Source: Vasconcelosia minhoensis LEGE 07310
Lineage (GTDB): Bacteria; Cyanobacteriota; Cyanobacteriia; Phormidesmidales; Phormidesmidaceae
DNA: 48,342 nt
NCBI RefSeq assembly: GCF_015207255.1
Contig: NZ_JADEXG010000042.1
Location: 1 to 48,342 of the forward strand
Direction: 5' to 3'
Of this stretch, positions 34,888 to 40,254 are shown one piece after another. The notes beneath the pieces are model-generated. The model saw only the letters and a list, made by a program, of their open reading frames with translations, was not told the DNA's origin and did no database searches. The position numbers were made by a program, and so were the translations under genes. Numbering within the stretch: position 1 is the stretch's first letter; the number at the start of each line of letters is the position of its first letter.

Positions 34888-35832
34888 ATGGTCAAGGTTC
34901 ATCATTCGCTGCTAGCAGGACTTTGTGAGCTGGCGCTGCTGCTCGGGGCCTGTTCACCAGAGCCAGCGGCGGATTTAGCCCCATCGGCTGATGGAGCTGC
35001 GGCCTCGGGCGATGAGGTGGAGCCGCTCTCGGTCGGCGCGATTCCCGACCAGGATCCGGAAGAACTCCAGCGGCTCTATGGCAAGTTATCCGACTATCTC
35101 AGCCAGCAGCTCGGGGTGCCAGTGGCGTATCAGCCGGTAACGGACTACGCCGCAGCAGTGACGGCGTTTAAGGTGGGCGACCTAGACCTGGTTTGGTTTG
35201 GCGGCCTGACTGGGGTTCAGGCCCGGCTTCAAGTGGAGGGGGCAACCGCGATCGCGCAGCGCGACATCGACGAGCAGTTCCATAGCGTTTTTATCGCCAA
35301 CACCGCTAGCGGCATTGATGAAATCAACGACATCAGCGGCCTAACGGCGCTGAAGGGCCATACCTTCACTTTCGGCAGCGAATCCTCGACCTCCGGCAGA
35401 CTGATGCCGCAGTACTTTCTCCAGCAGGCGGGCCTGGCCCTGTCGGACTTCAAGGGCGAGCCCGGCTTCTCCGGCTCCCATGATGCCACCTTGAAGCTAG
35501 TCGAGGCGGGCACCTACGATGCTGGGGCGCTAAACGAGCAGGTTTGGCTCAGCCGCTTAGAAGCGGGCGAAGTCGATCAGAGCCGAGTCAAGGAAATCTG
35601 GCGGACGCCTGCCTACTACGACTATCACTGGGTCGTGAATCCGGCGGTCGAAGCTGAGTACGGCGAGGGCTTTACCGAAAAGATTCAGGCGGCGCTGCTC
35701 CAGCTCGACCCCAGCGATCCTGAACAGGCAGAGATTTTATCCCTATTCGGGGCAGAAAAATTCATCGAGACTGAAAACCAAAACTACGAGCAGATAGAGG
35801 CAATCGGTCGAGAGATTGGCAAAATTAAGTGA
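34888..35832 (+). CDS. PhnD-like binding lipoprotein, putative selenate/phosphonate
   Basis: 314 aa. Lipobox L-L-G-A-C with Cys22. The mature part starts L-S-V-G-A-I-P-D-Q-D-P-E and has Y-Q-P-V-T-D-Y-A-A-A-V-T-A-F, D-L-D-L-V-W-F-G-G-L-T-G-V-Q-A-R, F-G-S-E-S-S-T-S-G-R-L-M-P and F-S-G-S-H-D-A-T, features of the PhnD superfamily and especially of the branch annotated as putative selenate ABC transporter binding protein. Such genes normally precede an ATPase and permease. Here an integrase fragment follows, so the rest of the operon is absent from this locus. Confidence 0.85.
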   Translation: MVKVHHSLLAGLCELALLLGACSPEPAADLAPSADGAAASGDEVEPLSVGAIPDQDPEELQRLYGKLSDYLSQQLGVPVAYQPVTDYAAAVTAFKVGDLDLVWFGGLTGVQARLQVEGATAIAQRDIDEQFHSVFIANTASGIDEINDISGLTALKGHTFTFGSESSTSGRLMPQYFLQQAGLALSDFKGEPGFSGSHDATLKLVEAGTYDAGALNEQVWLSRLEAGEVDQSRVKEIWRTPAYYDYHWVVNPAVEAEYGEGFTEKIQAALLQLDPSDPEQAEILSLFGAEKFIETENQNYEQIEAIGREIGKIK

Positions 35833-35931: not shown

Positions 35932-36101
35932 TCATTCGATCTCAGCTCCACCCATTTCGGCTGGATGGCGCTTGCCGTGAAACAGGATGTAACGACGAAT
36001 CCAGTAGAAGTAGGTTTGCTCAGTACGGTAGGAGTAGTGCTTAATCCGAGTTTAGTTTGGTCACGAACTTGTTTAAGAAGCTTTCTAGGCCGAGTTTCCA
36101 T
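35932..36101 (-). pseudogene. integron-type tyrosine integrase, 5' fragment, frameshifted
   Basis: From ATG 36101 the minus strand reads M-E-T-R-P-R-K-L-L-K-Q-V-R-D-Q-T-K-L, the N-terminus of integron-type integrases. A shift of one base then continues as R-I-K-H-Y-S-Y-R-T-E-Q-T-Y, W-I-R-R-Y-I-L-F-H-G-K-R-H-P-A-E-M-G, ending at a TGA (35932-35934). These are the SAM-like N-terminal domain residues of IntI/XerC relatives. The catalytic domain with R-H-R-Y is absent; only about 100 nt separate it from the upstream binding-protein gene. Non-functional. Its orientation, away from the plus-strand genes to the right, is that of an integron integrase. Confidence 0.8.
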
Positions 36102-36227
36102 ACGCTAGGCCAACAGAACGTATGTATTAATCTGCCACAGAGTCTATGAACTGACTGCTTGCAACTGGAAGATATCCTGAAACTATCCATATATCCACCT
36201 AATATGAGCGTACTGTATGGATAGCTC

Positions 36228-36262
36228 GCAGTCTATCTAGCTGATTGGGATAGATAGGCTGC
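36228..36262. other. stable hairpin in integrase-DUF3800 gap
   Basis: GCAGTCTATCTA (36228-36239) pairs with TAGATAGGCTGC (36251-36262), 12 pairs with one T-G mismatch. Just before it CTATCCAT (36183-36190) pairs with ATGGATAG (36217-36224). Where an integron would carry attI and the cassette promoter, this structured stretch replaces coding sequence. GTTAT motifs follow at 36284 and 36297. Confidence 0.55.
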
Positions 36263-36381
36263 AAGAGTAGGTCTAATAACCTAGTTATGCCGCTGAGTTA
36301 TCTGTGAGACTGTCACCTAAACAGTATCTTGGGAGGCGTCTTAGATGAAGTAAGTAGATTATCCTAATCATTTGTAGGACT

Positions 36382-36511
36382 ATGTCATGCTGAGCATTGC
36401 GCTAGCGCAGCCATGCCCCTTGGGCTATAGCATCTCACGGGAGCCTTTACATATCAAGAGATTCCTCGGCTTCGTTGCTCCTCTGGAGCCGCTTCGCGAA
36501 CGGAATGACAT
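36382..36511. mobile_element. MITE-like element with ATGTCAT ends
   Basis: A 130-bp segment begins ATGTCATGCTGAGC and ends with ATGACAT, the reverse complement of its first seven bases. Inside are CATCTCACGGGAGCC and GAGATTCCTCGGCTTCG, familiar pieces of a widespread bacterial intergenic repeat. Short ORFs crossing it are not convincing. It occupies part of the 557-nt space between the integrase start and the DUF3800 gene. Confidence 0.5.
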
Positions 36512-36658
36512 CCTTGGGCTTAATTGTGCCGACCTACTTAGGCAATGGGTGGAGCAAGTGATACAATTAGAGGCACAGTCAAGAGATCTGACCTTTTCGG
36601 ATCGTGGAAGCATGGTCTTCCCTTGACTGATTTTGCCTTTAAAGGGATATGAAGCAGC

Positions 36659-37351
36659 ATGTATCTACTGTACGTAGATGAGTCTGGTACAACCCACGAC
36701 CCAAATCAACAGTATTTCGTGCTAGCTGGGTTTTGTGTGTTTGAGCGACAAGGATATTGGATTGCTAACCAGCTTGACCAAATTGCAGCTAGGTTTGATC
36801 CTGCTGATCCAGCAGTAGTTGAGTGACATGGCAGCCCCATGTTCGGAGGAAGAGGGCAATGGAGGAGTCATCCTAAAGAAAATCGGCATCAAGCGATTGA
36901 AGATGCCCTAAAATTTTTTCTGCAATCTCATCCTAGCAATCGATTATTTGCAAGCGTGATCAAAAAATCTGCGGTATCTCCAAAAGACCCTGTTGAGGCT
37001 GCATTTGAGCAATTAGCCAGTAGATTTGATAAGTACTTGATGAGATTGCATAGGAACGGCGACACGCACAGAGGAATCATCATCTTTGATAAATCTACTT
37101 ATGAGACAACAATTCAATCTCTGGCAACTGACTTTAGGGCGATTGGATACACCTGGGGTGTGATAAGGAACTTTTCGGAAGTACCTCTCTTTTTAGATTC
37201 AAAAGCATCAAGACTGATTCAACTTGCTGACTTGATTGCTTACGCTGTTTTTAGGCATTTTGAAAAGGGGGATAATAGATTTTTATCTATCATTGAACCT
37301 AGATTTGATTCAGAAAGTGGTGTAGTTCACGGGCTACACATCTTGCAATGA
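36659..37351 (+). pseudogene. DUF3800 protein with in-frame TGA
   Basis: The frame starts ATG 36659 with M-Y-L-L-Y-V-D-E-S-G, the DUF3800 N-terminus containing the acidic D-E-S-G motif, and runs to TGA 37349-37351 (230 codons). Codon 56 is TGA (36824-36826) in V-E-stop-H-G-S-P-M-F, where relatives have Leu (E-L-H-G-S), so TTA to TGA is a one-base change. The rest is intact: I-I-I-F-D-K-S, L-F-L-D-S-K-A-S-R-L-I-Q-L-A-D-L-I-A-Y-A-V-F-R. DUF3800 proteins resemble RNase H-fold enzymes and are common in mobile DNA. The AT-rich composition suggests transfer. Restart at ATG 36839 would yield 170 aa lacking the first acidic motif. Confidence 0.85.
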
Positions 37352-37357
37352 GTCGCG

Positions 37358-37444
37358 GTATAACAACCCGGTTGGAGCGGACTGCCGAGAGGTCTTGGTG
37401 TTGTTGCAAAGTTTCCTAACAGCCGCTTAACCTGAACGTTAGCC
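37358..37444 (+). other. attC-like integron recombination site
   Basis: Outer box GTATAAC (37358-37364, consensus RYYYAAC) and GTTAGCC (37438-37444, consensus GTTRRRY) flank an imperfect inverted repeat. The left arm C-C-C-G-G-T-T-G-G-A-G-C-G-G (37367-37380) pairs with CCGCTTAACCTG (37423-37434), leaving one unpaired G, the asymmetry typical of attC sites. Total length is 87 bp, within the known range. It lies 7 nt after the DUF3800 stop, as a cassette's attC should. Confidence 0.7.
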
Positions 37445-37451
37445 CGCCTCT

Positions 37452-37523
37452 ATGTATGAACTGCAAGTCGAAACCCTGATGCTCGCGCCGGTAGCGCGGT
37501 GCTTCGATCTATTGATTTATTAG
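37452..37523 (+). pseudogene. fragment of SRPBCC-type gene
   Basis: ATG 37452 opens M-Y-E-L-Q-V-E-T-L-M-L-A-P-V-A-R-C-F-D-L, then a stop at 37521-37523. The pattern E-T-x-x-x-A-P-x-x-R-C-F-D-L is the start of SRPBCC (Bet v1-like) proteins, which usually continue S-R-S-I-D-L-H. The start lies 8 nt beyond the attC-like core, as for the first gene of a cassette. Only about 20 codons survive before the BrnA-like frame takes over. Confidence 0.45.
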
Positions 37524-37714
37524 ATTGCCCAGAGATTACGCCAGAAATGTTTGCTAAGGCGGTAGTGCGGCGGGGTTTACCTGCTACAAAAACTAAGGCT
37601 CAAGTTACACTCCGCATTGATAGCGATGTATTGGAGCGGTTTAAGTCTCAAGGTCGGGGCTATCAAACACAGATTAATCAATTGCTACGAGCGTATATGG
37701 AGGCACATCAATAA
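37499..37714 (+). CDS. BrnA-like antitoxin (orphan)
   Basis: 71 aa from GTG 37499. The C-terminal ribbon-helix-helix matches BrnA: K-A-Q-V-T-L-R-I-D-S-D-V-L-E-R-F-K-S-Q-G-R-G-Y-Q-T-Q-I-N-Q-L-L-R-A-Y-M-E, preceded by E-I-T-P-E-M-F. BrnA represses its operon and neutralises the BrnT toxin. No BrnT gene lies upstream, where an SRPBCC remnant and the attC-like site are found instead. The first ten residues overlap that remnant and may not be native, so the N-terminus may be truncated. Confidence 0.75.
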   Translation: MLRSIDLLDCPEITPEMFAKAVVRRGLPATKTKAQVTLRIDSDVLERFKSQGRGYQTQINQLLRAYMEAHQ

Positions 37715-37885
37715 GAGACAGCTTGGGATTGCACATGAGAACCAGGATTGGGTAGTGCTCCACAGATAATGATTTCGAATACTCAAATGCTTGCATTCAG
37801 GGGGGCAGCCTAGCATCATTACTGAAATGGGGTACTATCAAAACTTTTATCCTGAAGAAAGCTTGCCAGCAGATTGGAGTGCCCT

Positions 37886-38974: not shown

Positions 38975-39310
38975 ATGCCTTACAAGTCCCAAACCGCGAC
39001 GACCGAAATGCAGGTGACGAGTATCCGCTTTGAGCGATCGCTGATCGACAAGCTCAAGGCGATCGCGGGGCGGCAGGGCTATCAGGCGCTCATCCGCGAG
39101 GTGCTGTGGGACTATGTCGAGCGGCAGACCGAGTCCCAGCTGCTGCAGATTCGCGCCACGCTGCCCTCAACGGCCCAGCAGCAGGAGCGCTGCGCCCTGA
39201 CCGATCGGATTATTCAACCCCAGGAGGAAATGCTGCTGGGGCTGACGACGGACGATCGGCTGGTGCCGCTGAGCCTCAGTACGGGTGAATTTGTCGCTCC
39301 GGTCGGATAG
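38975..39310 (+). CDS. ribbon-helix-helix-like protein paired with AbiEii-like gene
   Basis: 111 aa. Residues 12-50 resemble a CopG/ribbon-helix-helix unit: M-Q-V-T-S-I-R-F-E-R-S-L-I-D-K-L-K, G-Y-Q-A-L-I-R-E-V-L-W-D-Y-V. The C-terminal half, rich in Gln and Leu with L-V-P-L-S-L-S-T-G-E-F-V-A-P, has no known motif. It ends 11 nt before the nucleotidyltransferase gene, so the two are co-transcribed and could be an antitoxin/toxin pair. An alternative start at ATG 39008 would begin exactly at the ribbon strand. Confidence 0.75.
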   Translation: MPYKSQTATTEMQVTSIRFERSLIDKLKAIAGRQGYQALIREVLWDYVERQTESQLLQIRATLPSTAQQQERCALTDRIIQPQEEMLLGLTTDDRLVPLSLSTGEFVAPVG

Positions 39311-39321
39311 CAGGCGGGGAG

Positions 39322-40254
39322 ATGACTGAGCCTGGGGCAATTCCAAACCAACTACCGTTTTTAGCAGCGGTCTGCTGGCAGGTCAGCGACGTGCATCAGC
39401 TGACGCCCCGGCAGATGCTCCAGCGCTACGAGCGGGGCTGGCACTATCGGGGCGTGCTGGCCGACCTGGAGCCGCCAGAAGCGGCCTTTGTCGATCGGCT
39501 GGTGGCGGCCTACGGTTCCTGGCTGGGAGACATGTTCACTTTAGATCAGCATCAGAAAATTTTAACTATCCTCAGCCAGCTCAAGGCTGACCTGCTGGCC
39601 GACTGCCAGGCTTACTTCGGCGGCGGCACCTGGCTAGCGCTGAAATACGGCGAGTATCGCCTGAGTCGGGACATTGACCTGCTCTGTTCGGACCAGGCGG
39701 GCTATTTGCGGCTGCGACGGGCCGTGTTTGACCAGCGCCATCGGGCTTTATTTGAGCGCACGGACGGCCTGGATTTTCCCCGCGAGGTGCAGGCCAATCA
39801 TTATGGCATTCGATTTCCAGTGGTCGTAGACGGCCTGTCGATTCGGTTGGAGATCGTTTCTGAAGGACGGATTGCCCTAGATTTACCCGAAAAACCTAAC
39901 TGGTGTCCAATTGCTGGGCTCTGTGAGGTCGATGCGGCAGCGGAGAAACTGCTAGCCAACAGCGATCGCTGGCTCGACGCGGGCGTCCTGTCACGGGACC
40001 TGATCGACCTGGCTATTTTGCGGCGGCAGGATGCCCTGCCAGCAGCGGCATTCACTAAGGCAGAAGCGGCCTACCCGGTGGTAGAACCCCTGCGGCGCGC
40101 GATCGCGGCCTTTCAGCAAGACCCAGAGCATCGCCGCCGCTGCTATCAGGGGTTACAGGTGAAAGCACCGGGCCAGGTGGCAGAGGGGCTAGACCAGCTG
40201 GCGGCAGACTTTGACCTGGGGCAGACCGAGCGAATCCGGCTTGAGCGAGCCTGA
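39322..40254 (+). CDS. AbiEii-like nucleotidyltransferase (putative toxin)
   Basis: 310 aa, ATG with GGGGAG 4 nt upstream. The nucleotidyltransferase core is F-G-G-G-T-W-L-A-L-K-Y-G-E-Y-R-L-S-R-D-I-D-L-L (99-121), with the GG motif and the D-I-D metal pair of the AbiEii/AbiGii family. Then R-L-E-I-V-S-E-G and A-A-A-E-K-L-L-A-N-S-D-R-W, typical of this group. The first 90 residues (V-H-Q-L-T-P-R-Q-M-L-Q-R-Y-E-R-G-W) are an extra helical domain. Known relatives nucleotidylate tRNA or other targets in toxin-antitoxin or phage-defence systems; that role here is inferred. Confidence 0.8.
   Translation: MTEPGAIPNQLPFLAAVCWQVSDVHQLTPRQMLQRYERGWHYRGVLADLEPPEAAFVDRLVAAYGSWLGDMFTLDQHQKILTILSQLKADLLADCQAYFGGGTWLALKYGEYRLSRDIDLLCSDQAGYLRLRRAVFDQRHRALFERTDGLDFPREVQANHYGIRFPVVVDGLSIRLEIVSEGRIALDLPEKPNWCPIAGLCEVDAAAEKLLANSDRWLDAGVLSRDLIDLAILRRQDALPAAAFTKAEAAYPVVEPLRRAIAAFQQDPEHRRRCYQGLQVKAPGQVAEGLDQLAADFDLGQTERIRLERA

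What the first reader, a model, noticed from the sequence alone, without database searches (positions are those of the whole stretch)
35932..37714. Decayed chromosomal integron
Seen: a minus-strand IntI-type integrase N-terminus, then to its right plus-strand AT-rich small genes, with an attC-like site directly after the first. The geometry (integrase divergent from the array, attC 3' of the cassette gene, next ORF starting 8 nt after the core) is that of an integron. All parts are damaged: integrase truncated and frameshifted, DUF3800 with a stop, SRPBCC cut. Integrons are established in proteobacteria and reported sporadically elsewhere; a relic in a cyanobacterial chromosome is noteworthy.
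Basis: partly seen in the sequence, partly recalled or inferred. Interest (0 to 1): 0.82.

Follow-up and report, generated by a model that had tools for sequence, protein, structure and literature searches.

The report
Decayed chromosomal integron, cyanobacterium
This is the wreck of a bacterial gene-capture platform (an integron) in a cyanobacterial chromosome; the reading is right, but such wrecks turn out to be ordinary in this group of cyanobacteria.

Summary
The finding is confirmed.

An attC covariance model built only from other genomes scores the site 61.2 bits (E 3.7e-13). 80 control loci (895 kb) gave at best 14 bits. The 38-residue integrase piece matches only integron-integrase families in NCBIfam.

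It is ordinary for the group: 26 of 59 genomes (own included) have an integron integrase over the family cut-off and 55 of 59 carry attC sites. This genome has 16 attC sites on 12 contigs and further broken integrases on C59, C69 and C3. Integrons in Cyanobacteria are in print. Verdict: a real, inactive chromosomal integron, a new member of a known kind. Less ordinary are multi-copy platforms, scattered attC sites, and attI regions with a ~41-bp period.

The parts
35932..36101 (-). integron integrase (intI) remnant: N-terminal part only, one frameshift, then a TGA; the rest is gone
   Evidence: TIGR02249 39.5 bits and PRK15417 42.0 bits on 35935-36048, the only NCBIfam matches at E <= 1; PF13495 47.3 bits, a domain not specific to integrons; frames; no further integrase piece by tblastn with 20 integrases
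36183..36287 (+). attI-like site: two inverted repeats centred about 36204 and 36245 (41 bp apart) and motif CTAATAACCTAGTTA; predicted crossover between 36284 and 36285
   Evidence: DNA conserved in other genomes up to about 36265; crossover motif recognised by eye in 18 of 37 regions scanned; inverted repeats, without a shuffle control
36285..37438 (+). cassette 1 as it stands now, with a MITE-like element inside
   Evidence: inferred from the attI crossover and the attC core
36350..36542 (+). MITE-like insertion with TAAGTAG...CTACTTA ends
   Evidence: copy on contig C46 99% identical over 192 bp, on C71 86% over 191; no transposition shown
36574..36632 (+). conserved non-coding hairpin-like stretch in front of the DUF3800 gene
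   Evidence: also in front of the G030 homologue although synonymous sites are near saturation; fold z -2.7 and -2.4, but the inner parts of the two predicted folds differ
36659..37351 (+). DUF3800 gene, pseudogene by one TGA at codon 56 (36824-36826)
   Evidence: PF12686 74.7 bits read through; intact homologue in G030, 88% identity; dN 0.065 with pS 0.72
37358..37444 (+). attC site, 87 bp, R'' GTATAAC and R' GTTAGCC
   Evidence: covariance model R1 61.2 bits, E 3.7e-13; 2 of 16 pairs not standard, both in the outer R''/R' helix
   Evidence: sequence; no Pfam match; start pattern in no other of 59 genomes
37499..37714 (+). brnA antitoxin lacking its 5' end (homology from about 37510), no brnT before it and no attC after it
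   Evidence: PF14384 72.3 bits; 86-89% DNA identity to brnA in six other genomes (fetched from nine listed), 4 of 6 with an attC of 48-60 bits within about 0.5 kb on the same strand

Best explanation
The locus is the remnant of a chromosomal integron. An integrase (IntI) once inserted gene cassettes at attI by recombining the folded single strand of attC; the cassettes lie to the right of attI with their genes on the plus strand. Three cassette genes can be recognised or inferred: DUF3800, an unidentified gene, and brnA (with brnT in relatives). The platform then died. IntI was frameshifted and cut back to its first ~55 codons, a MITE-like element entered cassette 1, DUF3800 took a stop codon, and a deletion fused the start of cassette 2 to the middle of brnA. 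The searches of the whole genome show no intact integron integrase, so the attC sites should be immobile unless an integrase enters from outside. Shown by tool results: the integrase fragment, attC, DUF3800, brnA and its place beside attC elsewhere, the repeated element, and no intact integrase among the matches. Inferred: the exact crossover, the order of the decay steps, what the deletion removed, and the former activity.
For: attC model from 15 sites of 8 other genomes: 61.2 bits; control best 14.0 bits on 894,976 bases. Integrase fragment matches integron-integrase families and no other NCBIfam family. attI motif shared with integrase loci of other genomes. brnA beside attC in 4 of 6 relatives fetched. 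Canonical geometry in 19 of the 20 attC-bearing loci among 38 fetched integrase remnants. Own genome: further integrases on C59 (frameshift, interrupted 3' end), C69 (open frame but 66 profile positions missing) and C3 (N-terminal remnant), and 16 attC sites at E <= 0.01; of the 15 other than this one, 11 have an ORF on the same strand ending within 100 nt before attC or running into it (no chance control made).
Against: The bottom strand of this attC does not fold better than shuffles (z 0.08, against -2.8 for a relative's site), and 2 of 7 R''/R' pairs are broken. My first scanner did not separate it from chance. The DUF3800 homologue in G030 has no attC at E <= 0.5 in the 5 kb fetched, so DUF3800 is not generally a cassette gene. 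The ATG of DUF3800 lies 374 bp from the predicted crossover, long even after subtracting the 193-bp insertion. No sigma-70-like sites beyond chance (3 against 2.8 expected). The attI motif was found in only 18 of 37 regions. The damage rests on one assembly.
Confidence: 0.94

Rival explanations
1. A cassette-bearing fragment of an array without integrase (CALIN) was placed by rearrangement beside an integrase fragment from elsewhere.
For: The locus sits at a broken operon: phnD lies left of the relic, while the genes that follow phnD in 4 of the 6 related loci printed (phnC and phnE by my reading; L077 and L091 seem to be one genome) are on other contigs here. Many attC sites in these genomes lie far from any integrase match.
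Against: The fragment is integron-integrase by profile, the attI-like region between it and cassette 1 is continuous, and the geometry is canonical.
Confidence: 0.05
2. Unrelated phage-type recombinase remnant plus chance palindrome.
For: The main integrase piece is only 38 residues long, its Pfam domain PF13495 is not specific to integrons, and the naive pairing scan does not exceed chance.
Against: Only integron-integrase models match in NCBIfam; attC 61 bits against a 14-bit control maximum.
Confidence: 0.01

Closest known systems
Inactivated chromosomal integrons of Xanthomonas (PMC12444791, passages read)
   Same: intI truncated, frameshifted or stopped; cassettes left in place
   Different: in Xanthomonas intI lies downstream of ilvD in nearly all genomes; here integrase copies and remnants lie at several loci of one genome
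Integrons of Cyanobacteria (PMC2426708, PMC8618304, PMC8352920; passages read; one section of the last)
   Same: phylum, integrase family, attC sites (PMC8352920 built a Cyanobacteria attC model)
   Different: the passages I read name the phylum without describing decayed or multi-copy platforms or attI anatomy
CALIN and SALIN: attC sites without integrase (PMC9024848 and PMC12690207, passages)
   Same: cassettes stranded without a working integrase; most other attC sites of this genome look like this
   Different: the window locus still has an integrase remnant and an attI-like site

Membership tests
chromosomal integron | gene of the integron-integrase family | tested here: met
   fragment only: TIGR02249 39.5 bits, PRK15417 42.0 bits, no other NCBIfam family at E <= 1; far below the whole-protein cut-offs (265 and 435) because most of the gene is gone
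chromosomal integron | integron-specific insertion between conserved patches of the catalytic domain (recalled, not from a call) | not testable with these tools
   that part of the gene is deleted in the window
chromosomal integron | attI site next to intI | tested here: met
   conserved block and crossover motif as at integrase loci of other genomes (motif in 18 of 37 regions); recombination itself not tested
chromosomal integron | cassette with attC 3' of its gene, oriented away from intI | tested here: met
   attC at 37358-37444 plus, 6 nt after the DUF3800 stop; 61.2 bits
chromosomal integron | working integrase | tested here: not met
   frameshift, TGA and loss of the rest; hence a remnant, not a functional integron
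chromosomal integron | bottom strand of attC folds into the recombinogenic hairpin | tested here: inconclusive
   centroid shows the expected stem, z-score 0.08
CALIN | at least two attC sites and no integrase | tested here: not met
   one attC in the 48-kb window, integrase remnant present

The most novel reading that the evidence does not exclude
In this cyanobacterial group integron platforms behave like mobile, multi-copy elements: intI-attI is duplicated to new loci, cassettes spread over the whole chromosome (by platform duplication or insertion at non-classical attG-like sites), integrases are lost again and again, and the short 5' intI plus attI piece, as in this window, is kept longer than the rest, perhaps because it holds the promoter of the cassettes. 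The attI of these integrons is a chain of alternately inverted half-sites about every 20 bp, unlike attI1 as described in print.
Probability: 0.2. Interest if true: 0.6.

Novelty: new member of a known kind. Interest (0 to 1): 0.36.

Why it matters
By itself it is one more dead integron. It shows, with a tested attC model, that integron remains are common in these cyanobacterial genomes, and it points to multi-copy platforms and genome-wide scattered attC sites that can be used to ask how cassettes leave an integron and why integrases are lost so often.

Tried and rejected
A pairing scanner of my own for attC is too weak: shuffled windows reach its scores. I used it only to collect candidate sites for the covariance model, of which I kept 15 by eye (84-90 bp, attC-like ends) out of several dozen printed. 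One of the 15 lies on the strand opposite to the one expected from its integrase. Rfam gave no match in the window. Single-strand DNA folding of the attC is uninformative. The promoter scan gives no more than chance.

Empty-site test for attG-like insertion: two solitary attC loci of G030 were compared with four genomes of its genus. In neither is the difference a clean single cassette; in the best case (G011) about 1.8 kb including the cassette and other sequence is replaced by about 175 bp. So attG insertion is not shown.

Excess of N-terminal integrase remnants: among 38 loci fetched, 24 keep only the N-terminal part, 7 keep N- and C-terminal parts with an internal deletion, 6 only the C-terminal part and 1 the middle. 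I chose these loci mostly as terminal pieces from the list, which shows only its best rows, and some lie at contig ends, so the proportions are biased. A promoter within the 5' intI is an idea only.

attI palindromes by simple count: they exceed the shuffle mean in 15 of 17 regions, but the shuffle maximum in one only, and in the window type hardly at all (2 against 1.94). The regular spacing is the argument, not the count.

SRPBCC label: not verifiable.

Full report
What was claimed.

Integrase. On the minus strand an ATG at 36101 opens METRPRKLLKQVRDQ; the frame is then lost near a short tandem repeat and continues in another frame as 38 residues at 36048-35935, followed by TGA at 35934-35932. 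tblastn with 20 integron integrases of related genomes finds no further piece over 28 bits in the window. The 38 residues match two NCBIfam families at E <= 1, both integron integrase (PRK15417 42.0 bits, TIGR02249 39.5 bits), and Pfam PF13495 (47.3 bits), a domain that is not specific to integrons. No Xer or phage integrase family of NCBIfam appears for this fragment, while Xer families do appear, with lower scores, for the longer integrase on C69.

attC. Rfam gave no match in the window. I fetched integrase neighbourhoods of related genomes, collected candidate sites with a pairing scanner, aligned 15 from 8 genomes other than this one and built a covariance model (R1). In those 15 the L''/L' helix has changes on both sides at 8 of 10 pairs; the sites had been selected for pairing, so this is partly circular. 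R1 finds the window site at 37358-37444, plus, 61.2 bits, E 3.7e-13; the only other match at E <= 10 is the opposite strand of the same site. Over the whole genome it is third of 18 rows. Control: 80 loci around phnD homologues, 894,976 bases not chosen for integrons, gave a single match at E <= 10, of 14.0 bits, E 6.6. Against: my scanner alone could not separate the site from shuffles, two outer R''/R' pairs are broken, and the bottom strand does not fold better than shuffles.

attI. Between the integrase start and cassette 1 the DNA is 69-85% identical over stretches to several loci of other genomes, the longest ending at about 36265. In 18 of 37 regions beside integrases, remnants or attI-like stretches (the window among them) I recognise a motif CTA(A/C)-(spacer)-GTT before the array (picked by eye from pattern hits). 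The window has CTAATAACCTAGTTA at 36273-36287, which puts the crossover between 36284 and 36285. Of three integrase copies in G041, 94-96% identical to each other, copies a and b share the DNA up to this GTT and then differ, while a and c go on with the same first cassette. Two inverted repeats in the window lie with centres about 41 bp apart, at 36204 and 36245 (13 inverted repeats listed in 2 kb, no shuffle control). In the other attI type (contigs C59 and C69 of this genome, G041 and others) half-sites TAGGYGGAA and TTCCRCCTA alternate about every 20 bp by eye, with palindromes centred 40-42 bp apart in G041, C59 and C69. Counted simply, palindromes exceed the shuffle mean in 15 of 17 regions and the shuffle maximum in one. 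attI1 of class 1 integrons has two direct repeats beside the core (PMC4792948, passages).

Cassettes. DUF3800 (PF12686, 74.7 bits read through) has a single TGA at codon 56 and no frameshift. Against its intact G030 homologue (88% identity) dN is 0.065 while synonymous sites are near saturation (pS 0.72), so the gene was under selection until recently, or the stop is an assembly error. 3 of 59 genomes have a match at E <= 1e-10: this one, G030, and a 36-residue fragment in G004. The G030 copy lies beside a gene I read as carB, without an attC at E <= 0.5 in the 5 kb fetched, and shares with the window a conserved stretch of about 55 nt upstream that can fold as a hairpin (the inner parts of the two predicted folds differ). 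A MITE-like element occupies 36350-36542 (copy on C46 99% identical). After the attC an ATG at 37452 opens 20 codons of an unidentified gene, fused to a brnA antitoxin (PF14384) that lacks its start. Of nine other genomes with brnA matches listed I fetched six (86-89% identity); in four of them an attC of 48-60 bits lies within about 0.5 kb on the same strand, directly after brnA in three (L208, L209, L211) and before brnTA in two (L207, L209); L210 has only a weak site farther away (21.5 bits) and L212 none. The window has thus probably lost an attC, brnT and the start of brnA.

Surroundings. Left of the relic lies phnD (PF12974). In 4 of the 6 related loci whose ORFs I printed, phnD is followed directly by an ABC ATPase and a permease, phnC and phnE by my reading; two of the four (L077, L091) seem to be the same genome, L092 has another gene there and L094 is unclear. 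Here the permease lies in two pieces at the ends of contigs C18 and C50, with the ATPase on C18. The relic therefore lies at a broken operon. G+C is 45.0% in 35932-37714 and 57.1% in the window.

The rest of the genome and its relatives. The searches show no intact integron integrase in this genome: C59 has a frameshift and an interrupted 3' end, C69 an open frame that lacks 66 of 315 profile positions, C3 an N-terminal remnant; other matches of the profile (C10 and weaker) are below the cut-off. 16 attC sites score E <= 0.01 on 12 contigs; of the 15 other than the window's, 11 have an ORF on the same strand that ends within 100 nt before the site or runs into it, 4 do not (C23, C59 and both on C69; no chance control). 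Of 59 genomes (own included) 26 have an integrase over the TIGR02249 cut-off (at the looser E-value the profile also rings in all 14 control genomes, so only the cut-off counts) and 55 have attC sites at E <= 0.001 (none in G020, G021, G036, G048). By comparing the two lists, 30 of the 55 have no integrase over the cut-off. In the one-contig genome G058, 9 attC sites lie at 7 places when sites within 4 kb are joined. Of 38 fetched integrase remnants, 20 have attC sites at E <= 0.01 within the flanks, 19 of them with at least one in the canonical orientation; L277 also has one in the other orientation and L269 has only that.

Literature. Integrons in Cyanobacteria are listed in PMC2426708 and PMC8618304, and PMC8352920 made a Cyanobacteria attC model (passages, and one section of the last). 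Widespread inactivation of chromosomal integrases is described for Xanthomonas (PMC12444791, passages). CALIN and SALIN are named in PMC9024848 and PMC12690207 (passages). The attG paper of Loot and colleagues (2024) I saw only as cited there. My searches for cyanobacterial integrons and for attI palindromes showed no paper devoted to either among the titles listed; two searches listed only 25 of 39 and 15 of 379 papers, and the library lacks most subscription journals.

Verdict. A real decayed integron, correctly read, in a group where such remains are common. New member of a known kind. The multi-copy platforms, scattered attC sites and phased attI are worth a separate look; the mechanism of scattering was tested at two loci without a clean answer.

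Noticed in passing
G041: L191, L192, L193: Three near-identical integron integrase copies (94-96%) at three loci of one genome, sharing 190-290 bp beyond the integrase 3' end up to the attI crossover; one copy has one fewer ~80-bp attI repeat unit.
   Followed up: partly
G000 contigs C3, C7, C23, C53, C59, C67, C69, C81, C94, C118, C125, C145: Fifteen further attC sites of this genome on 11 of these contigs and an integrase remnant on C3. In front of the sites on C145 and C81 lie gene pairs that look to me like toxin-antitoxin pairs (by eye, not searched).
   Followed up: partly
window 36574-36632: A ~55-nt stretch in front of the DUF3800 gene is conserved in G030 although synonymous sites are near saturation; possible RNA or regulatory element.
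   Followed up: partly
window 34888-35832; contigs C18 and C50: Phosphonate-type transporter operon is split: phnD beside the relic, the ATPase and permease genes elsewhere.
   Followed up: partly
window 37750-37839: A second MITE-like element of ~90 bp with a 95% copy on contig C18 just upstream of the phnC-like gene.
   Followed up: partly
window 38975-40254: RHH-like small protein (weak matches only, below Pfam cut-offs) followed by an AbiEii-like nucleotidyltransferase (PF08843 68.5 bits; PADLOC AbiEii 222 bits and AbiEi 84.6 bits).
   Followed up: no
L251, L256, L259, L262, L275, L277, L283: Seven integrase copies in other genomes keep N- and C-terminal parts with an internal deletion, at different end points, as on C69 of this genome.
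   Followed up: partly
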